NCBI RefSeq assembly: GCF_000698555.1
Contig: NZ_JFHE01000014.1
Coordinates: 1-64,000 of the forward strand
DNA: 64,000 nucleotides
Source: Caballeronia grimmiae
Lineage (GTDB): Bacteria; Pseudomonadota; Gammaproteobacteria; Burkholderiales; Burkholderiaceae
Reading direction: 5' to 3'
Positions 8,688-61,241 of the stretch are shown piece after piece. The notes under the pieces were generated by a model. It searched no databases. It saw only the letters and a program-made list of their open reading frames with translations, and was not told where the DNA came from. The position numbers and the translations under genes were made by a program. The first letter of the stretch is position 1. Each line of letters starts with the position of its first letter.

Positions 8688-9069
8688 CGAAGACGGTGCG
8701 GAGGTTGCGCAGACGGCTATTGTACGGGGCGCGGCGGGGATTCTTGAAACGCTTGCCGGAGCGGCGGTTTGCGTTATGCGTGATGCATGCAATATGCAAT
8801 TGCCGCTGCTCGACGTTGTGCCGGGGCAGTGACTTGTTGGTGGAGCGGCACCGCACGCGACGGTTTCTTCGCTGCTTCATTGACTGAGACGCGGACGCGC
8901 CGCGACTTGCATGCAGCACACAGCATTTGATTTGGAGGATCTTTTCTCGAAGCCGCTTCGTAGCGGCGTCTTAGGTGCGGCTTGCTGTTGCGGCGGCCGG
9001 GCAGCAATTGCATGCAGCACGCCAAACGCAACACACAGCACGCAGAATGCAAACGCACGATTTACAGCC
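8688..9069. other. Gene-free region with several TTGCATGC repeats
   Basis: About 380 bp upstream of serB and downstream of the LysR gene, with no supported gene. It contains three members of the TGCATGC family: 8783-8799 (ATGCAT-GCAAT-ATGCAA), about 8907-8930 (TTGCATGCAGCAC...GCATTTGA) and about 9007-9053. The last begins TTGCATGCAGCACGCC and ends GAATGCAAA, with ACGCAACACACAGCACGC between. A small hairpin GCCGCTTCGTAGCGGC sits at about 8952-8967. The serB promoter presumably lies near 8700-8780, but I cannot place it. Confidence 0.6.
8783..8799. repeat. TTGCAT-N5-ATGCAA family palindrome (one mismatch)
   Basis: Reads ATGCAT-GCAAT-ATGCAA, matching the 12 defined bases at 11 positions with the constant 5-bp spacer. 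It lies about 95 bp upstream of the serB start. Confidence 0.65.
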
Positions 9070-10020
9070 CTACCTCTGCACCCGCCCCGGCTCCCTGTCC
9101 CAATAAGGCGGCTCCCCAAACCGTCCCGCCAGAAACTCGATGAACGCCAGCGTCTTCGGCGGCACGAACGCGCGGCTCGGATACACCGCCCAGATCGCGA
9201 CGGTCTGCGCGAGCGGATAGTCATCGAGCACGGTCACGAGTTCGCCGCTCGCCAAAAGCGGCGCGACGCTCCATGTCGACTTCAGTCCGATGCCGATGCC
9301 CGCGGCGAGCGCATCGCGGATCACTTCGCCGTTGTCCGTCACGAGCCGGCCCGATACACGCACATCGATGACGCCAGTCGGCGTGACGAAGCTCCAGTCG
9401 CGCTGGTTCGCGAGGATCACGCATTCGTGCTGCGCGAGATCGGCTGGATGGCGCGGCGTGCCGTGTTGCGCCAGATAGGCCGGCGACGCGCACAGCACGC
9501 GCCGATTGCTCGCGAGCTTGCGCGCAACCAGCGTCGAATCCTTCAGCGCGCCGATACGCACCGCGAGATCGATGCCTTCATCGACCACATCGACGATCTG
9601 ATCAGTCATGCGCAGATCGACGGTGACGGCGGGATACTGCCGCAAGAAATCGGGGATGAGCGGCGAAATATGCTGCCGGCCGAGCGACGAAGGCATCGTC
9701 ACGCGCAGCCTTCCGTGCGGCTGCTCCAGCGCCCGGCCGACCGACGCCCGCGCCGCTTCGGCCGCATCGAGCAGGCTGCGCGCATGCGTCGCGAAGATTT
9801 CGCCTTCCTGCGTGACGCTCACGCGCCGCGTCGTCCGGTGCAGAAGCCGCGCGCCGAGCATTCGCTCCAGTCCCGCGATGCGCGCGCTCGCCACCGCAGG
9901 CGACAAGCCGAACTCCCGCGCCGCCGACGACAGGTTCGCGAGCGCCGCGGCTCGCACGAAGAGCGCAACGTCCAGCAGATCGAGCCGGTCGCGCGTGCCC
10001 TCGGACAGGAACTCGCCCAT
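9070..10020 (-). CDS. LysR-family transcriptional regulator
   Basis: A 316-residue LysR regulator. The N-terminal winged helix-turn-helix spans about residues 14-75 (DLLDVALFVRAAALANLSSAARE... GLSPAVASARIAGLERMLGARLLHRTTRRV). An effector domain follows that resembles the CrgA/DmlR branch. It is divergently transcribed from the quinone-oxidoreductase-like gene at 10124, so that gene is its most likely target, and the perfect TTGCAT-N5-ATGCAA palindrome lies between them. The inducer is unknown. Confidence 0.9.
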   Translation of the reverse strand: MGEFLSEGTRDRLDLLDVALFVRAAALANLSSAAREFGLSPAVASARIAGLERMLGARLLHRTTRRVSVTQEGEIFATHARSLLDAAEAARASVGRALEQPHGRLRVTMPSSLGRQHISPLIPDFLRQYPAVTVDLRMTDQIVDVVDEGIDLAVRIGALKDSTLVARKLASNRRVLCASPAYLAQHGTPRHPADLAQHECVILANQRDWSFVTPTGVIDVRVSGRLVTDNGEVIRDALAAGIGIGLKSTWSVAPLLASGELVTVLDDYPLAQTVAIWAVYPSRAFVPPKTLAFIEFLAGRFGEPPYWDREPGRVQR

Positions 10021-10063
10021 TTGATGGATTCCCCGAAAAATGTTTCAAGGATTATCGCGTTTT

Positions 10064-10080
10064 TTGCATGCCGCATGCAA
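10064..10080. repeat. Perfect TTGCAT-N5-ATGCAA palindrome (LysR/oxidoreductase intergenic)
   Basis: TTGCAT-GCCGC-ATGCAA, a perfect inverted repeat with 8-bp arms around one base. It lies centrally in the 103-bp gap between two divergent start codons, 44 bp from each. Position alone would suggest an operator for the adjacent LysR protein, but the same sequence occurs at unrelated loci in the window. Confidence 0.75.
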
Positions 10081-10123
10081 GCTACCATGACTCCATCGTT
10101 CGAGTTCAACACAAGGAGCCATC

Positions 10124-11140
10124 ATGAAAGCCATCGGCCTGACCCGTTATCTGCCGATTTCCAATCCGGAATCGCTCGTCGATATCGAGTTGGACAAACC
10201 CACACCTACAGGCCGCGACTTGCTCGTGAAGGTCGAAGCCATCGCAGTGAATCCGGTCGACACGAAAGTGCGCGCGCCGAAAGACAAGGTGGAGGAAACG
10301 CCGCGCGTGCTCGGTTGGGACGCGGCGGGCGTGGTCGAAGCGGTTGGCCCCGAAGTCACGCTCTTCAAGGCCGGCGACCCGGTCTACTACGCCGGCGACA
10401 TCACGCGTCAGGGCGCGAATAGCGAGTTCCATCTGGTGGACGAGCGAATCGTCGGCGCGAAGCCGAAATCGCTGGATTTCACGCATGCCGCGGCGCTCCC
10501 GCTCACGACCATCACCGCGTGGGAAGCGCTGTTCGACCGGCTCAAGGTGTCCGCCGAAGGCAAGGACGCGGGCAAGACCGTGCTCATCATCGGCGGCGCT
10601 GGCGGGGTCGGGTCGATCGGCATTCAGCTCGCGAAGCAAGTCGCCAAGGTGCATGTGATCGCGACGGCGTCGCGGCCGGAATCCGCGAAATGGGCAAAGG
10701 AGCTGGGCGCGGATCGCATCATTAATCACTTCGAGGACATTCCGAAGCAACTGAAAGACGCGGGGATCGGCCAGGTCGATTACGTGCTGATCTTCAACGA
10801 CACCGACAAGCATTTCCCGGCAGCCGCCGAAGTCGTGAAGCCGCAAGGCGGCATCTGCACGATCGTCGAAAACGCGGGACCGCTCGCCATCGATTTGCTG
10901 AAGGCGAAGAGCGCCGCGTTTCATTGGGAGTTCATGTTCACGCGTGCTATGTTCAAGACGCCTGACATGATCGAACAACACAAGCTGCTGTCCGAAGTGG
11001 CGCGGCTGATCGACGCAGGCACGATCCGCACGACGCTCGGCAAGAACATCGGCAAGATCGATGCGGCCAATTTGCGCGAAGCGCATCGTCTTCTGGAAGA
11101 AGGGCGGGCAATCGGCAAGCTGGTCTTGACGGGTTTCTGA
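10124..11140 (+). CDS. Zinc-type alcohol dehydrogenase-like / NADPH:quinone oxidoreductase family protein
   Basis: A 338-residue medium-chain dehydrogenase/reductase. It has the N-terminal GroES-like fold (PTPTGRDLLVKVEAIAVNPVDTKVR), then a Rossmann domain with IIGGAGGVGSIGIQLAK near residue 155. The cysteine ligands of catalytic and structural zinc are absent, so it is better read as a zinc-independent NAD(P)H oxidoreductase of the quinone reductase branch despite the usual family name. The ribosome site is AAGGAG just before the ATG. It is divergent from, and probably controlled by, the LysR gene. Confidence 0.85.
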   Translation: MKAIGLTRYLPISNPESLVDIELDKPTPTGRDLLVKVEAIAVNPVDTKVRAPKDKVEETPRVLGWDAAGVVEAVGPEVTLFKAGDPVYYAGDITRQGANSEFHLVDERIVGAKPKSLDFTHAAALPLTTITAWEALFDRLKVSAEGKDAGKTVLIIGGAGGVGSIGIQLAKQVAKVHVIATASRPESAKWAKELGADRIINHFEDIPKQLKDAGIGQVDYVLIFNDTDKHFPAAAEVVKPQGGICTIVENAGPLAIDLLKAKSAAFHWEFMFTRAMFKTPDMIEQHKLLSEVARLIDAGTIRTTLGKNIGKIDAANLREAHRLLEEGRAIGKLVLTGF

Positions 11141-11302
11141 AGCCGCGTTTGAAACGGTCCGGTGCTTCGTTTTGCCGCGCGGCTGCCTCGGGTTTTCCAT
11201 GAGAAAGGCCGGACACGCGCGGCGCTAGACTGACTCCGCTATAAGCCGATTCGGCGTCGATCGCGCCGGATCATCATCAAGTGCTTGTCACGGAGGTGCC
11301 GG

Positions 11303-11857
11303 ATGAATCGACGTTCGAACGAAGGCCGCCGCGCCATCGCAGCCATGCTCGCGATGACTGCGCTCGCGACGGCTCACGCGACGCCCGGCATCAAGGTCCT
11401 GTCCGAAGCGCCCAACGACGGCCCGATCAAGTACACGATCAAGATGGCGTCCAAGAACTTCGGCAACGAGCAGGAGACGCGCACGATCCGCTCCGGCCAG
11501 ACGGACGACTTCACGTGGCAGGGCACCGCGCCAAACGGCGCACAACCGGTGCCGGATGCGTGTCTGCAGGTCTCATCGGTGCCGCGCAGCGCGGAAGGCC
11601 TGGCCGTGAAGCAGGTGCAGATCCGCTTTGCGCCGGTCATCGCGGATAACGGCGTCGCCAATGTGCAGCTCAGTTTCCGCGCTTACGCGCCGAAGGGGAC
11701 GAGCAAGGTGACCGTGGGCGGCAAGACGCTGCAATGTCCCGGCGATAACCATCTCAGCCAGATCATCCGTTTTTCGATGCCCACGTCCACTGGCTCGAAG
11801 AAGACGGTCACGCTCGACGACGGTACACAGCTGACCGTCACCGCCAGCCGGAAGTGA
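11303..11857 (+). CDS. Secreted protein of unknown function
   Basis: The ATG at 11303 is chosen because GGAGG lies seven bases upstream. The 184-residue protein has a signal peptide with basic start and hydrophobic core, likely cut after THA or AHA near residue 26. The mature part looks beta-rich (KYTIKMASKNF, TDDFTWQGTAP, VQIRFAPVI, VQLSFRAYAPKG, KVTVGG, QLTVTASRK) and has two cysteines that could form a disulphide. I cannot name the family. It stands alone between unrelated genes. Confidence 0.75.
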   Translation: MNRRSNEGRRAIAAMLAMTALATAHATPGIKVLSEAPNDGPIKYTIKMASKNFGNEQETRTIRSGQTDDFTWQGTAPNGAQPVPDACLQVSSVPRSAEGLAVKQVQIRFAPVIADNGVANVQLSFRAYAPKGTSKVTVGGKTLQCPGDNHLSQIIRFSMPTSTGSKKTVTLDDGTQLTVTASRK

Positions 11858-12045
11858 GTCATCGGCATGCTAGGTGAATTTTGCATGCAGCCTTAACCTG
11901 CAACTAACGGTCTACCAGCGCCACCGCCCGATTCAACCGGCACAGCCACGCTTGGCACGCTTCCTGCGACTCATCACGATGCGCAATGCGCCGCATCTCC
12001 ACGTTCGGCGCAATCATCGACCGTTCCGACAGCGAGGTGCCCGCG

Positions 12046-12951
12046 ATGCCGCACATGATCTGGAAAGGCGCGATCAGCTTCGGGCTGGTCCACGTCCCCG
12101 TGCAACTTTATCCGGCCACACAGTCGGAGAAAGTTGGCTTCAATCTGCTCGACAAGCGCTCGATGGATCCCATCGGCTACAAGCAGATCAACAAGAACAC
12201 CGGCAAGGACGTTACGCGCGACAACATCGTGCGCGGATTCGAATACGAGAAGGGCAAGTACGTCGTGATGACCGATGCGGAAATCCGCGCGGCCAATCCC
12301 GAGTCGACGCAGACGGTCGATATTCTCTCGTTCGTCGATGCCCCGGAAATCTCGTTCCTGTCGCTCGATACGCCGTACTACCTCGCGCCCGATCGCAAAG
12401 GCGAGAAGGTCTATGCGCTGCTGCGCGACGCATTGAAGGACACCGGCAAGGTCGGCATTGCAAGCGTCGTCCTGCATAACAAGCAGCATCTGGCAGCGCT
12501 GATCCCGGTCGGTCCCGCGCTCGCGCTCAACACCTTGCGCTGGGGCGACGAAGTTCGCGATTTCTCCCAGTTCACGTTTCCCGATGAGGACACGAAGAAA
12601 GCGGGCGTCACGCCGAAGGAACTGGATATGGCCAAGCGCCTCATCGACGACATGAGCGATTCCTGGGACCCGACGAAGTATCACGACACGTTCCGCGACG
12701 ACATCATGAAACTCGTCGATCAGAAGGTGAAGGAAGGCAAGATCGCCGAAGTGATGAAGTTCGAGGAAGGTGGCGAAGAGAAGGCGAGCGCGGACATCCT
12801 CGATCTGTCGGAACTGCTCAAGCGCAGCCTCAAGAGCGGCGGCGCGGCGAAGGGCGGGAAAGCATCGCGAGCGAAAGACGATTCGGGCGATGACGCCAGC
12901 GAGGAACCGGCGCGGCCGGCTCGCAAGACGGTGCGTCGCAAGCGAGCCTGA
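12046..12951 (+). CDS. ku: Ku protein (non-homologous end joining)
   Basis: Bacterial Ku homodimers bind double-strand DNA ends and recruit LigD. The 301-residue protein has the Ku core from the start (MIWKGAISFGLVHVPVQLYPAT), with the conserved YKQINKNTGK and TPYYLAPD segments. The C-terminal 60 residues are Lys/Arg/Ala-rich, the extension thought to aid DNA binding and LigD contact. The ATG at 12046 has GAGG ten bases upstream. ligD follows after 51 bp, so the two form the standard NHEJ pair. Confidence 0.95.
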   Translation: MPHMIWKGAISFGLVHVPVQLYPATQSEKVGFNLLDKRSMDPIGYKQINKNTGKDVTRDNIVRGFEYEKGKYVVMTDAEIRAANPESTQTVDILSFVDAPEISFLSLDTPYYLAPDRKGEKVYALLRDALKDTGKVGIASVVLHNKQHLAALIPVGPALALNTLRWGDEVRDFSQFTFPDEDTKKAGVTPKELDMAKRLIDDMSDSWDPTKYHDTFRDDIMKLVDQKVKEGKIAEVMKFEEGGEEKASADILDLSELLKRSLKSGGAAKGGKASRAKDDSGDDASEEPARPARKTVRRKRA

Positions 12952-13002
12952 CAGCGATGATCCGCAATCCATGAAAGCACCGGTTAAGGAGCCTTCACGA
13001 CG

Positions 13003-15783
13003 ATGACGGCCAAGCTCGAAACCTATCAGCGCATGCGGCGCTTCAATGAGACGCCGGAGCCATCGGGACAGAAGACCGTCGCGCGCCGGGCATCGCGCAC
13101 GAAAAAGCCCGTAAAAAAGGCACTTTCTTTCGTCATCCAGGAACACGACGCCCGTCGCCTGCACTACGACTTTCGGCTCGAACTCGACGGCACGCTGAAA
13201 TCATGGGCGGTGCCGAAAGGACCGAGCCTCGATCCATCGGTGAAACGGCTAGCGGTGCATGTCGAAGATCATCCGATCGATTACGGCTCGTTCGAAGGCG
13301 ATATTCCCGAGGGCAATTACGGCGCGGGCAGCGTCATCGTGTGGGATCGCGGGACGTGGGCGCCTCAGACGGGCGGCCCCGAGGACGCTGCGCGCGAGTA
13401 CGAAAAGGGCAAGCTCAAGTTCATCCTCGACGGCGAGAAGCTGCAAGGCGGCTGGACGCTCGTGCGGAGTCACATGCGCGGCAGCGGCGACAAGGAGCAA
13501 TGGTTTCTCATCAAGGAACGCGACGATGAAGCGCGTCCCGAAGCCGAATACGACGTACTCCTGAAGAAACCGGGAAGCGTGTTGTCCGATTCGCTCGGAG
13601 CGCGGCTGGAAAACGGCGAACTGCGCGATCGCACCGAGCGCAAGGCGCAGCCGGCATCGCGGCGAACGGTTCCGCGTGCAGCGAAGGCCGCGAGCGACAA
13701 GGCCGATGATCACGCGCATCCAGATATCGTCGCGACGCGCAATGCGGAATCGTTGCGCGCGCTCTCGCATGATCCGGCGATAGAAGGCGCGGCGAAAGCG
13801 AAGCTTCCCGCGCTGCTCAAGCCGCAACTCGCGACACTCGTCGATGCCGCGCCACCCAGCGACGAATGGACCTATGAAATCAAGTTCGATGGCTATCGCG
13901 TGCTTGCGCGCATCGAGCAATCGAACGGCAAGCGCGATATCCGCATCTACACGCGCAACGGCAACGACTGGACCGCCAAGTTTCCAAAGCAGGTGAAGGC
14001 GCTCGAAAAGCTGGATATCGAAAGCGGCTGGCTCGATGGCGAAGCCGTCGTGCTCGACGATCGCGGACTGCCGGATTTTCAGGCGCTGCAGAATGCGTTC
14101 GATGTCGGCCGTCCGCAAGGCATCGTCGTGTACTTCTTCGATCTGCCTTTCCTCAACGGCTATGACTTGCGCAACGTGCCGCTCGTGCAGCGCCGCGCCT
14201 TGTTGAAGGCGATCGTCGAACCCGTCGGCGATGCCGCGCTGCGCTATTCCGAGGACTTCGCCTTCAGCGCCGATGATCTGTTGAAGAGCGCCTGCGACAT
14301 GTCGCTGGAAGGGATCATCGGCAAGCGCATCGACAGCACGTATGTATCGGGGCGCAGCAATTCGTGGATCAAGCTGAAGTGCCGGCGGCGGCAGGAGTTC
14401 GTCGTGTGCGGCTATTCGGAGCCTTCGGGAAGCCGCGGGCAGTTCGGTGCGCTGCTGCTCGGCGTGTATGACGGCAAAGGCAAGCTGCAATACGCGGGGC
14501 GCGTCGGCAGCGGCTTCGATCATGCGACGCTCGTCGCGGTGAAAAAGGAACTCGACAAGCGCGAGACCGATCGCATGCCTTTCGAGCGCGAGCCGCAGGA
14601 GCACAGCCGGACGCCCGTGCACTGGGTAAAGCCGGAACTCGTGGCTGAATGCAACTTCGCGGAATGGACCAAGGAGCACATCGTGCGACAAGCATCGTTC
14701 GTCAGTCTGCGTGACGACAAACCGGCGCGGCAGATCGTGAAGGAAGAGCCGGCATCGGCTAAAAAAGTCGAAGCGGAAGTCGAGGAAGACACGGCTAAAA
14801 AGCCTAAAGCTCGCAAGACGGCGGCGCGCACATCCGCCGCGAAGGAAGCGCCGGCAAAACCCGCGGCGAAGACGCGTTCCAAAGCGAATACGAGCGAAAT
14901 CGAAGGCGTGAAGATCAGCCACCCGGATCGGGTGATCGACAAGTCCACTGGCCTCACGAAGCTCGATGTCGTCGAGTATTACGCGTCGATCGCCGAATGG
15001 ATGTTGCCCCATCTTCACGACCGGGCCGTGTCGCTGGTGCGCGCGCCGGACGACATCAGCGGCGAGCTGTTCTTTCAGAAGCACAGCGCGAGGCTCGCGA
15101 TTCCGCATATCACGCAGCATCCGGACGCCGACCCCGAGCATCCGCCACTGTTGACCGTCGAATCGGCGCAGGCGCTCGTCGGCACCGCGCAGATGGGCAC
15201 CATCGAATTGCATACGTGGAACTCGCTGGTGTCGAACATCGAGAAGCCGGATCGCATGGTGTTCGATCTCGATCCGGGCGAGGGCGTCGGCTGGGACCGC
15301 ATGCTCGAAGCCGCGAAACTCACGCGCGACTTGCTGCAAGAACTCGGGCTCACGTCGTTCTGCAAGACGAGCGGCGGCAAGGGGGTGCACGTGGTCGTGC
15401 CGCTCGCGAAACAGGCCGGCTGGGACGAAATGAAGGCGTTCTCACAGGCGGTCGCGCAGCATATGGCGAAGACGCTGCCGAAGCTGTTCTCGGCCAAGAT
15501 GGGCATGCAGAACCGGCGCGACAAAATCTTTATCGACTATCTGCGCAACAATCGCGGCTCCAGCACGGTCTGCGCGTTTTCGTTGCGCGCCCGGCCAGGC
15601 ATGGGCGTGTCGATGCCCATCAACTGGGACGAGCTGGACGAGACCACGAGCGGCGATCAATGGAACATCCGCAACGCGCGCGCACGCATGGACGCGCTCG
15701 CCGCCGATCCGTGGGAAGGCTATGCGAAGTCGCGTCAGCGGCTCACCGTGCAGATGAAGAAGCGGCTGGGTATCGGCGGGTGA
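13003..15783 (+). CDS. ligD: Multifunctional ATP-dependent DNA ligase D
   Basis: Seals and processes broken DNA ends with Ku. The 926-residue protein has the Pseudomonas-type domain order. A 3'-phosphoesterase domain comes first (about residues 40-195, FVIQEHDARRLHYDF). An ATP-dependent ligase follows (about 265-570) with nucleophile Lys294 in YEIKFDGYR. A basic Ala/Lys linker (about 585-635) leads to a primase-polymerase domain (about 640-915) with the metal-binding Asp755 and Asp757 of FDLDPGEG. AAGGAG lies upstream of the ATG. All three catalytic modules look intact. Confidence 0.97.
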   Translation: MTAKLETYQRMRRFNETPEPSGQKTVARRASRTKKPVKKALSFVIQEHDARRLHYDFRLELDGTLKSWAVPKGPSLDPSVKRLAVHVEDHPIDYGSFEGDIPEGNYGAGSVIVWDRGTWAPQTGGPEDAAREYEKGKLKFILDGEKLQGGWTLVRSHMRGSGDKEQWFLIKERDDEARPEAEYDVLLKKPGSVLSDSLGARLENGELRDRTERKAQPASRRTVPRAAKAASDKADDHAHPDIVATRNAESLRALSHDPAIEGAAKAKLPALLKPQLATLVDAAPPSDEWTYEIKFDGYRVLARIEQSNGKRDIRIYTRNGNDWTAKFPKQVKALEKLDIESGWLDGEAVVLDDRGLPDFQALQNAFDVGRPQGIVVYFFDLPFLNGYDLRNVPLVQRRALLKAIVEPVGDAALRYSEDFAFSADDLLKSACDMSLEGIIGKRIDSTYVSGRSNSWIKLKCRRRQEFVVCGYSEPSGSRGQFGALLLGVYDGKGKLQYAGRVGSGFDHATLVAVKKELDKRETDRMPFEREPQEHSRTPVHWVKPELVAECNFAEWTKEHIVRQASFVSLRDDKPARQIVKEEPASAKKVEAEVEEDTAKKPKARKTAARTSAAKEAPAKPAAKTRSKANTSEIEGVKISHPDRVIDKSTGLTKLDVVEYYASIAEWMLPHLHDRAVSLVRAPDDISGELFFQKHSARLAIPHITQHPDADPEHPPLLTVESAQALVGTAQMGTIELHTWNSLVSNIEKPDRMVFDLDPGEGVGWDRMLEAAKLTRDLLQELGLTSFCKTSGGKGVHVVVPLAKQAGWDEMKAFSQAVAQHMAKTLPKLFSAKMGMQNRRDKIFIDYLRNNRGSSTVCAFSLRARPGMGVSMPINWDELDETTSGDQWNIRNARARMDALAADPWEGYAKSRQRLTVQMKKRLGIGG

Positions 15784-15829
15784 GGCGTCGGTCAACCTGA
15801 ACACATCAACGCAAACTCTGGACATCGAC

Positions 15830-32270: not shown

Positions 32271-32287
32271 TTGCATTCGGCATGCAC
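32271..32287. repeat. TTGCAT-N5-ATGCAA family palindrome (one mismatch)
   Basis: TTGCAT-TCGGC-ATGCAC, with 11 of the 12 defined bases, lies 56 bp upstream of the cystathionine gamma-synthase-like start. The spacer differs from that at 59738-59754 by one base. Confidence 0.65.
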
Positions 32288-33581: not shown

Positions 33582-33603
33582 GTGGTTTTCTGAATGCAAT
33601 CAA

Positions 33604-33633
33604 AATGGCCGCCTTCGCATGAAGGCGGCCATT
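33604..33633. terminator. Bidirectional hairpin terminator
   Basis: A perfect 13-bp stem, AATGGCCGCCTTC (33604-33616) with GAAGGCGGCCATT (33621-33633), separates two convergent genes. T runs are short on both sides (GCATTTT on plus, TTTTGATT on minus), so efficiency is uncertain. The right arm runs into TTGCAT-TTTGA-ATGCGG (33632-33648), a weaker member of the palindrome family. Confidence 0.7.
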
Positions 33634-33652
33634 GCATTTTGAATGCGGCCGA

Positions 33653-35849: not shown

Positions 35850-36629
35850 GTGGTGGAAAACTCGAACAGCATTGAAGTCGTCATCGTCGCGAGCGCATTC
35901 GGCGCCGATGCAGTGCGTCGCGACGGACACGCCGCTTGCGCGGAGAAGGCGGCGCTCGCGGGAGCGGACGGTTTCGAAGTGCGGCGCGAGCTGATTGCCG
36001 ACGATGCCGGCACGCAACTCGATGCGCTGGCTCGTCTCGGCGAGCGTATTCGAGGCGCGGGCTTGTGGTCCGTGCACTCGACGCCCGCGACGCTGTTTCG
36101 TGGCGATGGTTCGTTGGATGCCGATGCGCTGACTCTCGCTGTCGATGAAGCCCACGCGCTAGGCGCGCGCATCGTGAAGCTGCAGTTGGGTGGCAAAGAG
36201 GGCAGCGTCGCTATCGATGCCGCGACGATCGATTGCATTACGCATGCAATCGCTGGCTCGCGGGCGCGGGTTGTCGTCGAAAACGGGCAGTCGGTAGAAG
36301 GCGGCCTGCCTGGCGCGTTCGAGACGCTGTTCGCCGCGCTCCCCGCCGAGAGCGCTCTTGGAATGACGTTCGACACGGGCAACTGGCACTGGACGGGCGC
36401 CGATCCGCTCGATGCGGCGCAACGGCTCGCGCCGCATGTCGCGTACGTGCATTGCAAGACGACGGAGGGCGAGGGCGCACGTCGCTTCGCCGTGGCGCCG
36501 GCCCATGACGACGCCCGCTTCGCCGCGATTCTCGAACGCTTGCCGTCGACCGTGCCCCGTGCGATCGAATATCCGCTCCAGGGCGATGCCGACGCCGCCG
36601 TCCAGGTTGCACGCATCGCGGCATTTTGA
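35850..36629 (+). CDS. kguE: 2-Ketogluconate locus epimerase/isomerase-like protein
   Basis: A 259-residue TIM-barrel protein of the sugar phosphate isomerase/epimerase (AP endonuclease 2-like) family, equivalent to KguE of Pseudomonas kgu operons. Its exact reaction is not established. Visible blocks are ASAFGADAVRRDGH, ADGFEVRREL, VVVENGQ, MTFDTGNWHW and VHCKT. The start is a GTG at 35850 (or 35853), because longer frames cross the LysR terminator and the operator. The coding sequence contains a perfect TTGCAT-N5-ATGCAA palindrome at 36233. kguK follows after 70 bp. Confidence 0.82.
   Translation: MVENSNSIEVVIVASAFGADAVRRDGHAACAEKAALAGADGFEVRRELIADDAGTQLDALARLGERIRGAGLWSVHSTPATLFRGDGSLDADALTLAVDEAHALGARIVKLQLGGKEGSVAIDAATIDCITHAIAGSRARVVVENGQSVEGGLPGAFETLFAALPAESALGMTFDTGNWHWTGADPLDAAQRLAPHVAYVHCKTTEGEGARRFAVAPAHDDARFAAILERLPSTVPRAIEYPLQGDADAAVQVARIAAF
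36233..36249. repeat. Perfect TTGCAT-N5-ATGCAA palindrome inside kguE
   Basis: TTGCAT-TACGC-ATGCAA, with arms extending to 8 bp (GATTGCAT/ATGCAATC, 36231-36251). It encodes IDCITHAIA without breaking the frame and is the only perfect copy inside a gene. Confidence 0.7.
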
Positions 36630-36639: not shown

Positions 36640-36663
36640 CTGCATGCCGCATTAAGCATGCAA
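36640..36663. repeat. Degenerate TGCATGC element between kguE and kguK
   Basis: CTGCAT-GCCGC-ATTAA then GCATGCAA. The centre GCCGC is identical to that of the perfect site at 10064, and the right half is displaced. It is followed by an A/C-rich tract (ACGCGTAGCACCCAGCAC) like that near 9030. Confidence 0.5.
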
Positions 36664-43973: not shown

Positions 43974-44015
43974 TTTTGCGTGCCGCATGCTGCATGCCGC
44001 ACTCAAAATGCAAAA
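43974..44015. repeat. Double TGCATGC element before the AsnC gene
   Basis: Two degenerate copies of the 17-bp motif sit head to tail with the same GCCGC centre: TTGCGT-GCCGC-ATGCTG (43976-43992) and CTGCAT-GCCGC-ACTCAA (43990-44006), then ATGCAAAA. The middle forms an 11-bp inverted repeat with one mismatch (43980-43990 with 43992-44002). It ends 47 bp before the AsnC start codon. Confidence 0.6.
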
Positions 44016-55318: not shown

Positions 55319-56554
55319 ATGAAAGGCTTCAAAAAGACCCAGGCCGCGCTCATCGCCGCGACCGCATTCGCAGCCGCTGCACCGGCTTTCGCGCAAAGCA
55401 GCGTGACGCTGTACGGTATCGTCGACGACTCGATCGTTTATCAGAGCAGCCAGACGAATCTGTCGAAGACGGCGGCTGGCCGTTCCAACGTCAAGCTCGC
55501 GTCGGGCATCTGGGCGGGCAGCCGCTTCGGCCTGAAGGGCGCAGAAGACCTCGGCGGCGGCACCAAGGCAATCTTCCAGTTGGAGTCCGGCTTCAACATC
55601 AACAGCGGCGCGCAGCAGTACGCAAACGCGATGTTCGGCCGCCAGGCATGGGTCGGTTTGACGAACGCTGGATTCGGTACGCTGACGCTCGGTCGCCAGT
55701 ACACCTCGTACTACACGCTGATGGCGCCGTACAGCCCGACCAACTGGCTGACGGGTTACTTCGGCGCGCACCCGGGCGATCTGGACGAACTGGACACGAT
55801 CTACCGCGCGAACAACTCGATCGTCTATACGTCGCCGAAGCTGTACGGTTTCACGGTCAGCGGTTCGTACTCGCTCGCAGGCGTGCCTGACAGCGTGTAT
55901 CAAGGCTCGACGTGGTCGGCTGCGATCCAGTATCAGCAGGGCCCGATCGGCGGTACGGTCGCGTTCACGCGCATCAACAACTCGACGGTTGGCGGCGGCG
56001 TCTACGGTGACGCTTCGACGACCAACACCGCAGGTCAGTCGGGCGTGTCGGCCGTGACCAACGGTTACCAGGGTGCGCAAGCGCAGAACCGCTTCGCGGT
56101 TGGCCTCGGCTACACGTTCAACAGCGCGTGGGACATCACCGCGACGTACACGAACGTTCAGTACATTCCGGGCATCAACTCGAAGTTCACCGATGAAGCC
56201 GTCTTCAATACGGCCGGCACGGTGCTGCACTGGAAGGCATCGTCGGCATGGGACTTCGCGGCCGGCTATAGCTACACCTGGGCAAGCAAGGCGAACGGCA
56301 TCTCGGATGCAGCGTCTTACCACCAGTTCAATCTGTCCCAGTACTACTCGCTGTCGAAGCGTACTGGTCTGTATGCATTGCAAGCGTTCCAGCGCGCCAA
56401 CGGCCGCACGCTTGCAACGCCGACGTTCACGCCTGCCGGTGCGGTCAACCGCCAGACCGACGCAAACGCGACGATCGGCGACGGCTTCAACAGCACGCCG
56501 TCCGCATCGCGCAGCATGTTCGCAGCAGGCGTGGGCATCATCCACCGCTTCTAA
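55319..56554 (+). CDS. Outer-membrane porin (OmpC-like, Burkholderiales type)
   Basis: A 411-residue trimeric porin. The signal peptide (MKGFKKTQAALIAATAFAAAAPAFA) is followed by the family start QSSVTLYGIVDDSI, then the repeated beta-strand pattern (GSRFGLKGAEDLGGGTKAIFQLE, FGRQAWVGLTNAGFGTLTLGRQY). It ends in a C-terminal aromatic, IIHRF, the outer-membrane assembly signal. AGAGGAG precedes the ATG. A strong terminator follows. Confidence 0.95.
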   Translation: MKGFKKTQAALIAATAFAAAAPAFAQSSVTLYGIVDDSIVYQSSQTNLSKTAAGRSNVKLASGIWAGSRFGLKGAEDLGGGTKAIFQLESGFNINSGAQQYANAMFGRQAWVGLTNAGFGTLTLGRQYTSYYTLMAPYSPTNWLTGYFGAHPGDLDELDTIYRANNSIVYTSPKLYGFTVSGSYSLAGVPDSVYQGSTWSAAIQYQQGPIGGTVAFTRINNSTVGGGVYGDASTTNTAGQSGVSAVTNGYQGAQAQNRFAVGLGYTFNSAWDITATYTNVQYIPGINSKFTDEAVFNTAGTVLHWKASSAWDFAAGYSYTWASKANGISDAASYHQFNLSQYYSLSKRTGLYALQAFQRANGRTLATPTFTPAGAVNRQTDANATIGDGFNSTPSASRSMFAAGVGIIHRF

Positions 56555-56571
56555 GCCTTACTCGCTTCACG

Positions 56572-56605
56572 AAAAAACCGGACGCCTCGGCGTCCGGTTT
56601 TTTTT
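56572..56605. terminator. Bidirectional intrinsic terminator after porin
   Basis: A 15-bp perfect stem (AAAAAACCGGACGCC, 56572-56586, with GGCGTCCGGTTTTTT, 56589-56603) ends in eight T on the plus strand and has the complementary A run for the minus strand. It lies between the convergent porin and SDR genes and can serve both. Confidence 0.93.
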
Positions 56606-56623
56606 GCCCCGACGCCTCGCGCG

Positions 56624-57394
56624 TCAGATGAACATGCCGCCCGACACCTCCAGGCGCTGCGCGGTCATCCATCGATTGCCCTCGGACAGCATCGCCGCAA
56701 TCGCACCGCCGATGTCGTCCGGCACGCCCGCGCGCCCGAGCGCCGTGTTCTGCGCGACGAACTCGTTTACGTCCTGATCGTCGCGCACGCTTCCGCCGCC
56801 AAAATCCGTTTCGATCGCCCCCGGCGCAATGGTGTTCACCGTGATGCCGTGCGGACCGAGTTCCTTCGCGAGATAACGGGTGAGCACTTCGATGCCGCCT
56901 TTCATCGCGGCGTACGCAGCGAAGCCCGGCAGCGCGAAACGCGTCAGTCCGCTCGACACGTTCACGATGCTTCCTTCCTCGTGCAGGTACGGCAGCAACG
57001 TCTGCGTCAGGAAGAACGGTCCCTTGAGATGAATGTCGACGAGCCTGTCGAACTGCTCAGGCGTCGTATCGACGAAGGACGCATGGACGCCGATTCCCGC
57101 GTTATTCACCAGAAAATCGAAGTTGGTGCGCTCGAACGTCTGGTCTAGCGCCTTGCACACTTCATCGCCGAAATCGCTGAAAGTTTCGGATCGGCTGACG
57201 TCGAGCTTCAGCATCGCGCACTTGCAGCCCAGTTCCTCGATCTCGCCGGCTACTGCCTCGGCTGACGCGGCGTCGCTGTTCCATGTGCCGATGATGCCGA
57301 CACCCTGTTGCGCGAGCTTCAGCGCGGTGCTGCGTCCGAGTCCGCGGCCGGCGCCTGTGATGACTGCGACCTTTGAGCTCATGTATCCGTCCAC
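56624..57394 (-). CDS. Short-chain dehydrogenase/reductase (SDR)
   Basis: A 256-residue oxidoreductase with the cofactor motif TGAGRGLGRS near residue 14, NNAG, the catalytic Ser in NVSSG, and Tyr/Lys in YAAMKGG. The GTG at 57394 is chosen because AAAGGAG lies seven bases upstream; an ATG four codons later lacks a site. The substrate is unknown. It is divergent from the hypothetical gene at 57548. Confidence 0.88.
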   Translation of the reverse strand: MDGYMSSKVAVITGAGRGLGRSTALKLAQQGVGIIGTWNSDAASAEAVAGEIEELGCKCAMLKLDVSRSETFSDFGDEVCKALDQTFERTNFDFLVNNAGIGVHASFVDTTPEQFDRLVDIHLKGPFFLTQTLLPYLHEEGSIVNVSSGLTRFALPGFAAYAAMKGGIEVLTRYLAKELGPHGITVNTIAPGAIETDFGGGSVRDDQDVNEFVAQNTALGRAGVPDDIGGAIAAMLSEGNRWMTAQRLEVSGGMFI

Positions 57395-57547
57395 TGGCTG
57401 CTCCTTTGCGTTGCGTTGCGTTGAACACTGCACGAACTGTAGAACGGCCAGGCGCTCAAGGGAACTCCGCGCGATGCTGCACTGCATCGTGCGCGGGCGC
57501 GTGCCTTGCTGGTTGGCTTCGATCAACGCATCGAAGGAGAATTCGCC

Positions 57548-57946
57548 ATGACTTCAGAAGACAACTCGAAACAGGGCAGTTCAGCGCAAGGCAGCGACGC
57601 CCCCGGCTTCGCGCGTCCTTTCCGGCTTTTCGCGGTAGAGCAGCGTGTACTGGCGCAGAACGTCGACGGCAAGGTGATCGACATCGGCGCAATGGATTCG
57701 AGTAACGGCCAGTTCTGCGCGCGTCTCGATGTCGACGAAATCGCCGTCGAGCCGAAGCGCAGCCCGGAGCTTGCACTCAAGGCGCTGGTCGACAAGCTGA
57801 CGTTCGATTACCTCGATGGTCTGTTCACGAGCGAGGGCGAAGCGGAAGTGAGCGGGCGTCTTCAGGACTTCCCGAACGTCGAATTCGAGCTGGACGAAAC
57901 CCTGCCGCGCGATATGGTGGATCGCACGCCGCCTCACATTTTCTGA
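57548..57946 (+). CDS. Hypothetical soluble protein
   Basis: A 132-residue acidic protein with AAGGAG before the ATG. After a Ser/Gln-rich start it has an ordered region (FRLFAVEQRVLAQNVDGKVIDIG, LDVDEIAVEPKRSPELALKALVDKLTFDYLDGLF). I do not recognise a family. It is convergent with the DUF2235 gene, with 16 bp between stops. Confidence 0.65.
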   Translation: MTSEDNSKQGSSAQGSDAPGFARPFRLFAVEQRVLAQNVDGKVIDIGAMDSSNGQFCARLDVDEIAVEPKRSPELALKALVDKLTFDYLDGLFTSEGEAEVSGRLQDFPNVEFELDETLPRDMVDRTPPHIF

Positions 57947-57962
57947 TGTGAGGACACCTGCC

Positions 57963-59009
57963 TTACTGACCGAGCGGTAAACCGCGCAGTTGCTCGCGCA
58001 AGGCGGGATACGCATCGAGGAAGCCGGGCGCATCGAGCCGATCGAACAGGCTCGGATCGATTGTTTCGTTCAGCGCCGCGCCCGCTGCGCGCGGCTCTTT
58101 CTGGCAGACATCGCGAAGCAGCGGGTTCTTGCTGGTGAATTCGGTATAGGAATCGATCGGCTCCGACGCATACGCGGCATCGGGGATGGTTATCGGTTTA
58201 TCGAACGTGAGGCCGTGCGATTCCGCTTTTTGCCGCAGCCATTCGGCAGGAATCAGCGGCAGAAGGTCGGCCGGATCGCGGGGCGGGCTGACGTAGCCGC
58301 CGCCCACATTTGCATGCGCGCCCGCAAACCAGCGCTGTTCGAGGGGCAGTGTGCCGCGAGCTTGCGCGCCCGGCGTCCACAAGGTCGGCTTGTAAAGAGA
58401 GCGGTATTCGTTGGCGGCGACCGCGTGATAAGCGGCTTTTGTGCGGTTCGAGAGCGTGGTGTCGTGAAACCGGTAATAGCTGGAAAAGCCGGGTACCGAG
58501 AGACCGCCGATCGGAATGCCGAGTTCGCCGACGGTGTCCCACACGCCGATGAACGCGACATCGACTTCACGCGAGAATTGCTGCCGATACGCCTGTACCG
58601 ATGCGTCGTCCGGACTGACGCCCTGATCGCGGTAGATGCCGTAAGCCTGACGAATGGAATCGTTGCTCCAGTCGTTTGCCAGTCCGCATTTGCGGATCAG
58701 ACCGGCAAGACTGCGCGCCGAATACGCGCCGCGAGAGAACCCGAAGATATAAATCGATGCGCCCGGCCTGTACCGCTCGCACAACCATGCATAGCCGTGT
58801 TTGATGTTGTCGGAGAGGCCGTCGCCGAAGGCGCCGCCGAGAAACTTGTTCGCGAGCGAGAAGAGTCCATTGCCCTGCGTGCCGACGCCGGGCACATAAA
58901 GCGTTTCCTGTTCATCGGACTCGGGCGCAAGCTTGTAGAGAAGATACGCGTTGGTGCGGTCGTTCGGCTCGTTCCAGGTGCCATCGAAGAAAAGGGCGAG
59001 TTTCGTCAT
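57963..59009 (-). CDS. DUF2235 alpha/beta-hydrolase (Tle1-like phospholipase fold)
   Basis: A 348-residue protein with the DUF2235 opening (LALFFDGTWNEPNDRTNAYLL), the lipase nucleophile elbow GFSRGAYSAR (Ser92), the Asp of GVWDTVG and a His-containing WFAGAHANVGGGY. Type VI secretion Tle1 phospholipases share this domain, but here there is no VgrG, PAAR or lipoprotein immunity gene adjacent and no signal peptide. It may be an orphan effector or a house-keeping hydrolase. The start at 59009 gives the family N-terminus. Confidence 0.85.
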   Translation of the reverse strand: MTKLALFFDGTWNEPNDRTNAYLLYKLAPESDEQETLYVPGVGTQGNGLFSLANKFLGGAFGDGLSDNIKHGYAWLCERYRPGASIYIFGFSRGAYSARSLAGLIRKCGLANDWSNDSIRQAYGIYRDQGVSPDDASVQAYRQQFSREVDVAFIGVWDTVGELGIPIGGLSVPGFSSYYRFHDTTLSNRTKAAYHAVAANEYRSLYKPTLWTPGAQARGTLPLEQRWFAGAHANVGGGYVSPPRDPADLLPLIPAEWLRQKAESHGLTFDKPITIPDAAYASEPIDSYTEFTSKNPLLRDVCQKEPRAAGAALNETIDPSLFDRLDAPGFLDAYPALREQLRGLPLGQ

Positions 59010-59196
59010 GTTGGTCTCCGGGGCGTGGCCTTGTGTCCTAACAGATAGGAAATCGGCGCCCGGCATGCAAGCGCTTCATGTGCGCCCGTTCACGAACGGC
59101 GTGACCGCGCTGGATTTTGTCGGAAACGACAGAGCACGAGCCGTGTAGAGATGCGATGCTGAAGATTTACCGAGCAGTTTCTTCGTGGAGCGAATC

Positions 59197-59406
59197 ATGC
59201 AAAAGCACTTCGCCCGAATTCTTCTCGTCGCCGCTGCATCGACCGCAGTCGTTGCCCATGCACGCGACGACGGACCGCGTTTCGCTCAGGACCGGCTCGA
59301 TGCGCTTGTTGCGCAGCATGCGGAAGCGAAGCGGCATATCGCGCCCATAAAGCAGGACGCGCCGCCCGCCAGCGCTGCGGCGGAGCGCACGGACGGCGCT
59401 TCGTGA
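59197..59406 (+). CDS. Small secreted protein, unknown function
   Basis: A 69-residue protein starting at 59197 after GTGGAG. The signal peptide (MQKHFARILLVAAASTAVVAHA) leaves a short, charged mature peptide (DDGPRFAQDRLDALVAQHAEAKRH) with an Ala/Pro tail. It is divergent from the DUF2235 gene, with 187 bp between, and ends 2 bp from the convergent DUF1272 gene. Confidence 0.6.
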   Translation: MQKHFARILLVAAASTAVVAHARDDGPRFAQDRLDALVAQHAEAKRHIAPIKQDAPPASAAAERTDGAS

Positions 59407-59408
59407 CA

Positions 59409-59660
59409 TCAGTTTGAGTGCTGCTGCGCGCAAGCCGGATTGAAAACCCGCTTCGTCGATGCCGGGTTGTTCGCGAGCTTTCCGACCGGCCGACGTGGCC
59501 GGGCCACGAGTTCGCCGCCGCAGTTGGGGCATTTCCCATTCAGCACGCGGGTCGCACAGTCCACGCAAAAAGTGCATTCGAATGAGCAGATTCGAGCCTC
59601 GGCGGAATCTGGCGGCAGGTCTTTGTCGCAACACTCACAACCAGGTCTCAACTCCAGCAT
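59409..59660 (-). CDS. DUF1272 zinc-binding protein
   Basis: An 83-residue protein with the cysteine pattern of DUF1272: CECCDKDLPP, ICSFECTFCVDCA and GKCPNCGGEL, at least nine cysteines in three clusters, likely binding two metal ions. The family is uncharacterised. The C-terminal 25 residues are extra to the core. Confidence 0.85.
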   Translation of the reverse strand: MLELRPGCECCDKDLPPDSAEARICSFECTFCVDCATRVLNGKCPNCGGELVARPRRPVGKLANNPASTKRVFNPACAQQHSN

Positions 59661-59737
59661 GACGGTTTCCTGTTGATGGTCTCAGCGCGAGACGGTCGAT
59701 GCAGCATAACAAGCTGAGCGTTTCCTGTTCGACTGTT

Positions 59738-59754
59738 TTGCATTCGGTATGCAA
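59738..59754. repeat. Perfect TTGCAT-N5-ATGCAA palindrome
   Basis: TTGCAT-TCGGT-ATGCAA; one more T/A pair extends each arm to TTTGCAT/ATGCAAA (59737-59755). It lies 71 bp upstream of the lipoprotein start at 59826, in the promoter region. Confidence 0.75.
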
Positions 59755-59825
59755 ATTGCTGCGGTGCCGCGACGTTCCGCCGACTCCGTGCCGACGATCC
59801 TCCTCGCACAATCCACCCCGAGCCC

Positions 59826-60917
59826 ATGATCAGGACCTTAGCCAGCACGATCCCCACGAAAGCCTTGTCCATTGCCGTTCTGTCCGCCTCCTTTCTTGCG
59901 GCAGGCTGTTCCAGCCTTGGCCCGTCACGCCTCAAGGCCGATCAGGTCGACTACGCCCGCGCGCTCGGCGATGCGCAGAAGCGCGAAATCCTCGCTGCGA
60001 TCGTCGGTCTGCGTTTTGCCGATGCGCCGTCGTTTCTGACCGTGAGCAGCATCATCGCGGCCTACAACTTCGATGCAAGCGGCGGTGCAATTTTGAATGC
60101 AGGATCGGGCGCGCAACCGAACTATGCACAGGCGACGGGCAGCGTGTCGTATTCGAATCACCCGACGTTCACCTTCACCCCGACGACCGGCGACGCCTAC
60201 GCCAGCGCCTACATCCGGCCGCTGTCGCCGACGCTCGTGCTGCCGCTCGCGGAGAGTGGCATGCCGATCGACTTGCTGCTGCGTATCACCGCGCAATCGA
60301 TCGCGGGCCTCCAGAACGGCAACGCGCTCGGCGGGCCGAACGCATCGGGCGCGCCGGAGTTCTTCCTGTTGATTCAGGCGTTGAGGCGTTTGCAACTGGC
60401 GGGCGAGTTGAACGTGGAATCGCGCAACGAGGACCACGTGGGGCGCGTGTACATCACGCTTGCCGCGACGCGCAGCGGCTCGAACAAGGCCACCGTCGAC
60501 GACCTCGCACTTGTCCGCAAGCTGCTTCATCTGTCGCCGAAGATGAAGACGTATGAGATCGTGTACGGCCAGTCGTCGGACAAGGATCGCATTCCGATGG
60601 TGACGCGCTCGGTATTCGGCATCCTGACCGATCTCGGCGCGCAGATTCCTGTACCCGACGCGCAAGTCGGAACCGGCGCGACAAAGCCGACGATCGGCCT
60701 GATCGGTGGCGAAACGCGGCCGACCATCGTCGTGAAAGTCGGCGAGAAAGCGCCACAGGATGCGTACGTAAGCGTGCTCTACGACAAATCGCAGTACTGG
60801 ATCGATCGGGGCGACTTCGACTCGAAGTACGCGTTCACTGTCGTGCAGAACCTGATGGCGCTCGCGGAAGTCACCGATACGTCGAAGGCGCCGGTGGTGA
60901 CAATTCCGGCGAACTGA
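59826..60917 (+). CDS. Putative lipoprotein of unknown function
   Basis: A 363-residue lipoprotein with signal sequence and lipobox LAAGCSS near residue 28. The mature part has no domain I can name: an N-terminal helical segment (DQVDYARALGDAQKREILAAIVGLRFADAP) with a following beta-rich region and a C-terminal segment YVSVLYDKSQYWIDRGDFDSKYAFTVVQNLMALAE. It precedes the RND pump gene by 324 bp. The two are separated by a strong hairpin, so cotranscription is doubtful. Confidence 0.75.
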   Translation: MIRTLASTIPTKALSIAVLSASFLAAGCSSLGPSRLKADQVDYARALGDAQKREILAAIVGLRFADAPSFLTVSSIIAAYNFDASGGAILNAGSGAQPNYAQATGSVSYSNHPTFTFTPTTGDAYASAYIRPLSPTLVLPLAESGMPIDLLLRITAQSIAGLQNGNALGGPNASGAPEFFLLIQALRRLQLAGELNVESRNEDHVGRVYITLAATRSGSNKATVDDLALVRKLLHLSPKMKTYEIVYGQSSDKDRIPMVTRSVFGILTDLGAQIPVPDAQVGTGATKPTIGLIGGETRPTIVVKVGEKAPQDAYVSVLYDKSQYWIDRGDFDSKYAFTVVQNLMALAEVTDTSKAPVVTIPAN

Positions 60918-61241
60918 AATTGCGTTTTGCATGCGGCATGCAGCACGCCGCATGCAAAACGCCTCCCTGACAGCCGGCTGACCGTTTCATGTCACGGGCG
61001 ACAAGTTGTGCTCAGCAAGAGCAAAAGGCAATACCGCGCCAAACCACGCTGCGCGGCTTGACTGACGCCATTCGACGCGAAGCAACGCATTGATCTAAAG
61101 AAAACCTTCCGCATAAACCCTCGCAACCGTTTGCGCGATTTGTTTTGTAAGCTTCATCTGTGTCATCGTATCGAGACCATCGAGCAGGGCGAAACAACAC
61201 AGCGCGCAGATAACAAACCCAACGGGGCAGGCGGAATTTCG
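60918..61241. other. Gene-free region before the RND pump gene
   Basis: Apart from the inverted repeat at 60922-60962 no gene is supported. The segment 61080-61200 is less GC-rich (GATCTAAAGAAAACC, GCGATTTGTTTTGTAAGC) and probably contains the pump promoter. I cannot place the boxes with confidence. Confidence 0.5.
60922..60962. repeat. Perfect 16-bp inverted repeat of the TGCATGC family
   Basis: GCGTTTTGCATGCGGC (60922-60937) and its exact complement (60947-60962) flank a 9-base loop, ATGCAGCAC. Inside, TTGCAT-GCGGC-ATGCAG (60927-60943) matches the 17-bp family with one mismatch. It begins 5 bp after the lipoprotein stop and could act as a terminator hairpin, but no T run follows. Confidence 0.75.

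What the first reader, a model, noticed from the sequence alone, without database searches (positions are those of the whole stretch)
8783..60962. Dispersed 17-bp palindrome TTGCAT-N5-ATGCAA
Three perfect copies (10064-10080, 36233-36249, 59738-59754) and three with one mismatch (8783-8799, 32271-32287, 60927-60943) share a fixed 5-bp spacer, often of the type GCCGC or TCGGC. With 12 defined bases, chance predicts about one site per 17 Mb of equal-base DNA, so several in 52 kb is far above expectation. All but one are intergenic. Weaker relatives occur at 33632, 36640 and 43976-44006. Neighbours are serB, a LysR/oxidoreductase pair, a cystathionine gamma-synthase-like gene, an AsnC gene and a lipoprotein. 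It may be a global regulator site, a chromosome-organising signal or a small repeat; I know no regulator with this motif.
Basis: partly seen in the sequence, partly recalled or inferred. Interest (0 to 1): 0.78.

Follow-up and report, generated by a model that had tools for sequence, protein, structure and literature searches.

The report
Clustered seven-base DNA repeat arrays
The palindrome is the shortest case of tandem arrays of a seven-base box found between genes in a few zones, on three replicons, of a Caballeronia bacterium, most likely docking sites for an unknown protein that marks those stretches of its chromosomes or controls the genes in them.

Summary
TTGCAT-N5-ATGCAA is the two-box case of a tandem array of a 7-bp box (GCATGCN, two to seven copies) bounded by TTGCAT and ATGCAA. 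In the host genome (Caballeronia by SerB identity, 6.7 Mb, draft), 21 of 22 arrays in the 1.24 Mb that I held lie in three zones of 53-62 kb: nine in window 8.8-61 kb, nine on contig C2, three on C10. The zones are syntenic with three different replicons of a near-complete relative. In a capped genome listing, 20 of 21 places inside the zones are in register, against 9 of 55 outside, the chance level; a perfect two-box site on small contig C35 is an unplaced exception. Arrays are mostly intergenic, share no flanking homology, and recur at orthologous places with different box numbers (25 of 40 comparisons, 8 of 108 control gaps). A protein-binding array is the likeliest cause. Whether it marks chromosome domains (my reading, as matS or SegB sites do) or serves as operators is open: gap types show no promoter bias, yet 11 of 18 arrays lie 30-100 bp upstream of a start (5.2 expected). 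The protein is unknown; terminus targeting is unproven.

The parts
8784..8799 (.). Short or degenerate array, 97 bp upstream of serB; 4-5 boxes at the same place in three relatives (GAFFF1, C. concitans, G012)
9008..9052 (.). Degenerate 6-box array between serB and the LysR gene
10064..10080 (.). Perfect 2-box array in the divergent LysR/oxidoreductase gap; gap 103 bp here, 101-113 bp in nine array-less Caballeronia
32271..32287 (.). 2-box array 57 bp upstream of a Cys/Met-metabolism PLP enzyme gene; 6 boxes in C. concitans and 5 in G012 at the same place
36233..36249 (.). 2-box match inside an AP_endonuc_2-like gene, the only in-gene copy in the window; possibly chance
36641..36663 (.). 3-box array between two co-directional genes, 12 bp after a stop and 38 bp before a PfkB-kinase start
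43978..44013 (.). 5-box array 50 bp upstream of an AsnC/Lrp-family gene; array at the same place in C. concitans, none within 450 bp in G012
59738..59754 (.). Perfect 2-box array 73 bp upstream of a gene without Pfam match (lipoprotein-like by eye); array nearby in G012, none in C. concitans
60927..60957 (.). 4-box array with T and A edges, 11 bp after the stop of that gene; 2 boxes in C. concitans

Best explanation
These are binding arrays for an unidentified sequence-specific DNA-binding protein of a Caballeronia clade. The protein reads a 7-bp box; two to seven boxes in tandem let several copies sit side by side, a spacing that recalls ribbon-helix-helix proteins. The arrays mark particular stretches of 53-62 kb, dense on two replicons (nine arrays each here) and sparse on a third (three). 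On the main chromosome the stretch lies next to the dif-like site. The bound protein would act on chromosome layout or segregation (compaction, or tethering between replicons or to the division site), with regulation of neighbouring genes as a side effect. Shown: the array grammar, the zones, mostly intergenic placement, conservation of place with turnover of box number, one clade for the four bearers tested. Inferred: that a protein binds (I would say 0.8), that it is ribbon-helix-helix-like, and the architectural role.
For: 7-bp register: GCATGC-GCATGC lags 7, 14, 21 and 28 occur 12, 5, 3 and 2 times (lag 4, the overlap GCATGCATGC, 5 times). TGCAT-to-ATGCA spans fall 85 times in one class mod 7 against 12-20 in each other; 27 of the 85 are TGCATGCA itself. 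TTGCAT-then-ATGCAA is in register 13 of 16 times; the reverse order gives 5 pairs without pattern. Zones: 21 of 22 arrays in 1.24 Mb; 20 of 21 listed places in register inside, 9 of 55 outside (from the 100 rows listed of 121). Synteny with three replicons of G012 of 2.84, 1.23 and 0.75 Mb. Clusters on contigs of G092, G093, G097, G098 and G099. Orthologous place: 25 of 40 comparisons against 8 of 108 control gaps. Gap types as expected from length: 6 divergent, 10 co-directional, 2 convergent against 4.7, 10.8, 2.5. No sign of kept base pairing: 6 of 20 doubly changed pairs complementary, 14 of 41 spacer pairs. Four bearers in one clade, support 0.998. Window zone 37-89 kb from the dif-like site at C14:97,979, near a GC-skew switch.
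Against: 11 of 18 intergenic arrays lie 30-100 bp upstream of a start against 5.2 expected (P 0.005), which favours operators. No binder was found: no ribbon-helix-helix family among 20 proteins scanned near arrays. The C10 zone holds arrays at only two places 53 kb apart, and on the second replicon of G093, G097 and G099 only one site was found. A perfect two-box site (C35:37,075) and one-mismatch sites on C3, C12, C29 and C83 lie outside the zones. Zones are one-sided with respect to dif and 54-107 kb (C10) and 149-211 kb (C2) from it; by my hand calculation dif proximity over three replicons is not significant (about 0.17). C9 has a dif-like site and no array among the rows listed. Zone limits were set after seeing the data. 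Mirror order of inner boxes is weak (T first in 14 of 25 left and 6 of 25 right; A last in 8 and 10 of 25).
Confidence: 0.4

Rival explanations
1. The arrays are operators of a transcription factor whose target genes happen to be grouped. Boxes overlap promoters and repress or activate the flanking genes.
For: 11 of 18 intergenic arrays lie 30-100 bp upstream of a start, 5.2 expected, P 0.005 (range picked after seeing the distances). One lies between the divergent LysR and oxidoreductase genes. C2:249398, called in-gene, lies upstream of an epimerase start.
Against: Gap types follow gap length. Two arrays lie between convergent genes and seven lie 10-30 bp after a stop. Adjacent genes are mixed. 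Outside the zones register is at chance level.
Confidence: 0.32
2. The arrays are true terminus-domain sites, a functional replacement for matS, holding the termini of the replicons at the division site.
For: The zone on the ~3-Mb contig lies 25-90 kb from the dif-like site in 7 of 8 genomes measured, 114-138 kb in the eighth. V. cholerae carries matS sites in both terminus regions (PMC4177673, passages seen).
Against: One-sided, and mid-arm on the third replicon (149-211 kb). Synteny of this zone was tested in three of the eight genomes only, so the eight are probably one inherited locus. Lone sites lie far from dif (e.g. G092 C1:957,109).
Confidence: 0.2
3. They are heptanucleotide simple-sequence repeats made by polymerase slippage, a repeat type for which Burkholderia genomes are known.
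For: Box number differs between orthologous sites. PMC4679880 (passages seen) cites work with four Burkholderia spp. among the ten genomes richest in 5-11-nt repeats, heptanucleotides most abundant in most genomes. Of 7 exact period-7 runs in 1.24 Mb, 4 lie outside the zones with other units.
Against: Of the 11 arrays with three or more boxes, only 2 hold an exact run of 18 bp or more (plus C2:302263). One sequence family, in the same places in several species, with TTGCAT and ATGCAA ends in register.
Confidence: 0.1
4. They are a small mobile or hairpin repeat element (REP-like), acting as RNA hairpin or terminator.
For: Arrays are near-palindromic and several follow stop codons. The LysR-serB gap is about 80 bp longer in GAFFF1 and C. 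concitans than in array-less relatives, by eye.
Against: 20 flanks share no homology beyond two overlapping neighbours. At 10064 gap length is unchanged. No sign of kept pairing. T-run before and A-run after the stem is the reverse of an intrinsic terminator.
Confidence: 0.08

Closest known systems
SegB sites of Sulfolobales (PMC12284271, passages seen)
   Same: 13-bp site TCTAGA-S-TCTAGA: two palindromic hexamers one base apart, the same 7-bp period as GCATGC-N-GCATGC; ribbon-helix-helix binder; tens of sites; a proposed link of chromosome organisation and segregation.
   Different: Other sequence; mostly inside genes (83.7% in S. solfataricus); scattered over one archaeal chromosome; no 3-7-box arrays in the passages seen.
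pSM19035 ParB (omega) heptads, parS (PMC9499535, passages seen)
   Same: Contiguous 7-bp boxes in direct and inverted order; two boxes bound with high affinity, at least four needed for full ParA stimulation. That omega is ribbon-helix-helix is recalled.
   Different: WATCACW box; promoter-linked sites on one plasmid; ParA partner known.
MatP/matS (PMC4177673 passages seen; matS consensus recalled)
   Same: Dispersed sites in the terminus region, same site family on both V. cholerae chromosomes.
   Different: Single palindrome of other sequence (recalled). The PMC7188993 abstract says MatP is found only in enteric bacteria, although V. cholerae has it.
ZapT of Caulobacter (PMC7188993, passages seen)
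   Same: DNA-binding protein with terminus-proximal binding sites outside enterics.
   Different: No consensus motif found; sites mostly within ORFs; MerR family.
TAACTGA heptamer repeats of Beggiatoaceae (PMC4679880, passages seen)
   Same: Intergenic heptamer arrays of two to six copies with patchy distribution.
   Different: Almost all direct repeats (169 sets, one indirect), near start codons, no zone confinement described in the passages seen.

Membership tests
MatP/matS | matS consensus GTGACRNYGTCAC (recalled) | tested here: not met
   Box is GCATGC at 7-bp period
MatP/matS | Sites grouped around dif of each chromosome | tested here: inconclusive
   Near the dif-like site on the main chromosome, one-sided, mid-arm on the third replicon
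MatP/matS | MatP protein encoded | not tested
   No MatP search was run
pSM19035 omega/parS | Contiguous 7-bp boxes, two or more | tested here: met
   46 arrays of 2-7 boxes
pSM19035 omega/parS | WATCACW sequence | tested here: not met
   box composition
pSM19035 omega/parS | Adjacent ParA (delta) and omega genes | not tested
   Only 20 proteins near arrays were scanned, none of these families; the genome was not annotated
SegB sites | Two palindromic hexamers at 7-bp period | tested here: met
   GCATGC-N-GCATGC
SegB sites | TCTAGA core, mainly intragenic | tested here: not met
   GCATGC core; 20 of 22 not inside a gene after correcting one start
Transcription-factor operators | Preference for promoter-bearing gap types | tested here: not met
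   6/10/2 observed against 4.7/10.8/2.5
Transcription-factor operators | Closeness to start codons within gaps | tested here: met
   11 of 18 within 30-100 bp upstream, 5.2 expected, P 0.005; range chosen after seeing distances
Heptanucleotide simple-sequence repeat | Pure head-to-tail repeats of one unit | tested here: not met
   2 of 11 arrays of three or more boxes hold an exact run of 18 bp or more
REP-like mobile repeat | Shared element sequence beyond the box, insertion | tested here: not met
   No flank homology; gap length unchanged at 10064; the longer gap at serB leaves that site open

The most novel reading that the evidence does not exclude
A clade-specific chromosome-domain system of multi-replicon Burkholderiaceae: one protein reads variable heptad arrays that define a domain on each of three replicons and links these domains in trans, to each other or to the division site, so that separately replicating chromosomes are handled as one set.
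Probability: 0.25. Interest if true: 0.88.

Novelty: new variant of a known kind. Interest (0 to 1): 0.7.

Why it matters
Bacteria with several chromosomes must bring them through replication and division together. Hi-C work finds extended contacts between replicons in B. cepacia (PMC13342612, sections 14 and 15 read). The papers seen describe no site family shared by the replicons of a Burkholderiaceae genome (searches; listings only for most). A shared array family, in place in some Caballeronia and absent at the tested places in close relatives, would give a defined cis element, a natural with/without comparison and a bait for finding the protein. If the operator rival is right, it is still a regulator with an unusual variable heptad operator.

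Tried and rejected
Fixed 17-bp palindrome: replaced by the 7-bp array. PhaR (gene in the window) as binder: dropped, it rested on recalled motifs and was not tested. E. coli dif (typed from recall): no match at up to 3 mismatches in G000, G012, G061 and G064 nor a good one in held regions; a relaxed pattern showed the LB400 site, one per replicon, and from it the Caballeronia form. GntR gene at C2:301454 as binder: arrays flank it in three species but not directly upstream; not pursued. Phage origin: 4 and 1 loci in the viral collection, not examined further. No Rfam match at gathering scores and no tRNA in the window. Literature: searches listed no paper that I recognised as describing this motif in Burkholderiaceae; 7 papers were seen in passages or named sections.

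Not done: no structure prediction; no genome-wide search for MatP or ribbon-helix-helix families; no gene presence/absence comparison across the 58 genus genomes; GC skew of G012 was sampled, not complete; G092, G093, G097, G098 and G099 are not in the tree and their synteny was not tested; one search stopped with an error before its last item.
Full report
Observation. The six sites are present as described, and 11 matches at up to two mismatches compare with 1.81 +/- 1.47 in shuffles. Genome-wide there are 5 perfect sites in 6.70 Mb, 3 of them in this window, and 206 at up to two mismatches against 65 for the reversed pattern. My own independent-base estimate, by hand from 63% GC, is 0.09 perfect, 4 one-mismatch and 79 two-mismatch sites. 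SerB identity places the genome in Caballeronia: the best named hits are Caballeronia sp. GAFFF1 at 93% and C. concitans at 92%.

What the unit is. In 1.24 Mb of the genome GCATGC hexamers repeat at lags 7, 14, 21 and 28 (12, 5, 3, 2); lag 4, the overlap GCATGCATGC, occurs 5 times and no other lag more than twice. Of 16 TTGCAT-to-ATGCAA pairs within 90 bp, 13 are 3 mod 7, with spans 10, 17, 31, 38 and 45; the reverse order gives 5 pairs without pattern. Of TGCAT-to-ATGCA pairs, 85 fall in one class mod 7 and 12-20 in each other; 27 of the 85 are the 8-bp palindrome TGCATGCA. I collected 46 arrays from three genomes by a criterion that fixes TGCAT and ATGCA at the ends (2 boxes: 20; 3: 7; 4: 7; 5: 6; 6: 3; 7: 3). 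Left boxes read TGCAT(G/T)(C/T), right boxes roughly the mirror image, and edges are T and A rich. Because the criterion fixes the ends, this mirror order is partly built in; in inner boxes of 19 longer arrays it is weak (T first in 14 of 25 left and 6 of 25 right boxes; A last in 8 and 10 of 25). The 17-bp palindrome is the two-box case. Only 6 of 20 doubly changed pairs are complementary and 14 of 41 spacer pairs pair, so kept base pairing is not evident.

Where they are. 22 arrays meet my criterion in 1.24 Mb; 21 lie in C2:246-309 kb (9), C10:107-161 kb (3, at two places) and C14:8.8-61 kb (9, all in the window), and 1 in C1 inside a gene. By the gene caller 19 of 22 are not inside a gene; one called in-gene (C2:249398) lies upstream of the likely true start of an epimerase gene, which makes 20. 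In the genome listing of TTGCATN{5,33}ATGCA (100 of 121 rows shown, ending at C29; merged to 76 places) 20 of 21 places inside the zones are in register, against 9 of 55 outside, where 7.9 is chance. At least one of the 20, C10:111604, looks like chance. Zone limits were drawn after seeing the data. At up to one mismatch of TGCATGCNGCATGCA, 16 of 21 matches lie in the zones, 2.6% of the genome; several are overlapping matches in one array. The other five lie on C3, C12, C29, C35 and C83, and the one on C35 (37,075; contig of 57 kb, unplaced) is perfect.

Three replicons. G012, a near-complete relative, has contigs of 2.84, 1.23, 0.75 and 0.68 Mb. The window is syntenic with its C1:1400-1480 kb, C2:235-302 kb with its C3:60-118 kb, and C10:151-165 kb with its C2:781-800 kb; C. 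concitans C26 and C35 match the window and C2. A dif-like site GCTAATTNNNNTTATGTCAA at up to one mismatch occurs about once per replicon, near GC-skew switches in C14 and C10. On the ~3-Mb contig the zone lies 37-89 kb (own), 38-90 (C. concitans), 38-90 (G012), 25-53 (G092), 38-90 (G093), 33-63 (G097), 37-90 (G099) and 114-138 kb (G098) from it. On the contig that I take as second replicon: 54-107 kb (own), 120-127 (G012), 92-152 (G092), 91 (G093, one site), 81 (G097, one site) and 188 kb (G099, one site). On the third: 149-211 kb (own) and 152-187 kb (G012). Zones are one-sided. Assignments in G092, G093 and G097-G099 rest on contig size alone. G092 C4, G093 C4 and G099 C4 carry clusters on contigs where the pattern found no dif, G093 C3 and G098 C5 carry further sites, and lone sites occur elsewhere (G092 C1:957,109; G097 C2:271,615 and 2,442,370). 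Over three replicons dif proximity is not significant by my hand calculation (about 0.17).

Conservation. At orthologous places (within 450 bp) an array is present in 16 of 20 comparisons with C. concitans and 9 of 20 with G012, against 8 of 108 array-less control gaps. Neighbouring arrays that map to the same relative's array are counted separately, so the test is somewhat optimistic, and C10:107809 was not compared. Box number changes freely: at 32271 there are 2 boxes here, 6 in C. concitans and 5 in G012. Among the 80 named SerB loci only those of GAFFF1 and C. concitans hold arrays (3 in 1.56 Mb). At the LysR/oxidoreductase gap the own species and C. concitans have an array, GAFFF1 has none, and nine array-less Caballeronia have gaps of 101-113 bp against 103 here, so the array there seems to have arisen in place. 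At serB the gap is about 80 bp longer in GAFFF1 and C. concitans than in array-less relatives, by eye. A 28-taxon tree of serB, lysR and rimO regions puts the window species, C. concitans, GAFFF1 and G012 in one clade (0.998). Over 58 genus genomes the pattern TTGCATGCNGCATGCA at up to one mismatch is commonest (forward/reverse) in G000 (15/10), G084 (12/12, same coordinates as C. concitans), G092 (11/11), G093 (12/8), G097 (10/8) and G095 (9/6); 48 of 58 have at least one match, most with five or fewer per strand, controls 0-1. So weaker arrays may exist outside the clade.

Function. Two tests on a list of 21 arrays (18 in gaps by the caller; not identical with the 22) point different ways. 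Gap types follow gap length: 6 divergent, 10 co-directional, 2 convergent against 4.7, 10.8 and 2.5. Within gaps, 11 of 18 lie 30-100 bp upstream of a start codon against 5.2 expected from random placement (P 0.005), a range chosen after seeing the distances. Adjacent genes are mixed: LysR twice, zinc-type oxidoreductase, PLP enzyme, PfkB kinase, AsnC, chemotaxis receptor, TetR, GntR. Flanks of 20 arrays share no homology beyond two overlapping neighbours. Exact period-7 runs are few (7 in 1.24 Mb, 3 in the zones).

Reading. A protein that reads a 7-bp box in tandem is the simplest cause. The 7-bp period with palindromic hexamers is that of SegB sites (PMC12284271), and contiguous direct and inverted heptads are those of pSM19035 parS (PMC9499535); the binders act in DNA segregation, SegB is ribbon-helix-helix by that paper and omega by recall. 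This compares geometry only. The zone distribution recalls matS, which V. cholerae carries in both terminus regions (PMC4177673). I commit to domain-marking sites for an unidentified protein (0.4), with operators as the main rival (0.32). No binder was found.

Noticed in passing
C14:97977-97998 (beyond the window, same contig), C10:54035, C2:457554, C9:31807: Dif-like sites of Caballeronia, consensus GCTAATTNNNNTTATGTCAA, about one per replicon; LB400 has GATAATT..TTATGTCAA at C1:2499997, C2:1673930 and C3:702048.
   Followed up: yes
window about 33600-33648: GC-rich hairpin next to TTGCATTTTGAATGC; by eye a terminator-type stem, not an array.
   Followed up: no
L078-L082, L089 upstream of serB: In array-less Caballeronia the LysR stop is followed almost at once by a TACAAT-type serB promoter; GAFFF1 and C. 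concitans have about 80 extra bases, and the window's gap is 382 bp.
   Followed up: partly
G066 C182 (C. arvi) and G069 C6 (C. jiangsuensis): A pair of in-register two-box sites 62-66 kb apart in both, suggesting older or weaker arrays outside the main clade.
   Followed up: no
G000 C35:37075-37089: Perfect two-box site on an unplaced 57-kb contig, outside the three zones.
   Followed up: no
L045:1137-1454 (G000 C10:101137-101454): FlhD gene just outside the C10 zone.
   Followed up: no
C1:378906-378940 of G000: Pure heptanucleotide repeat GCGACTT x5, intergenic, unlike the imperfect arrays.
   Followed up: no
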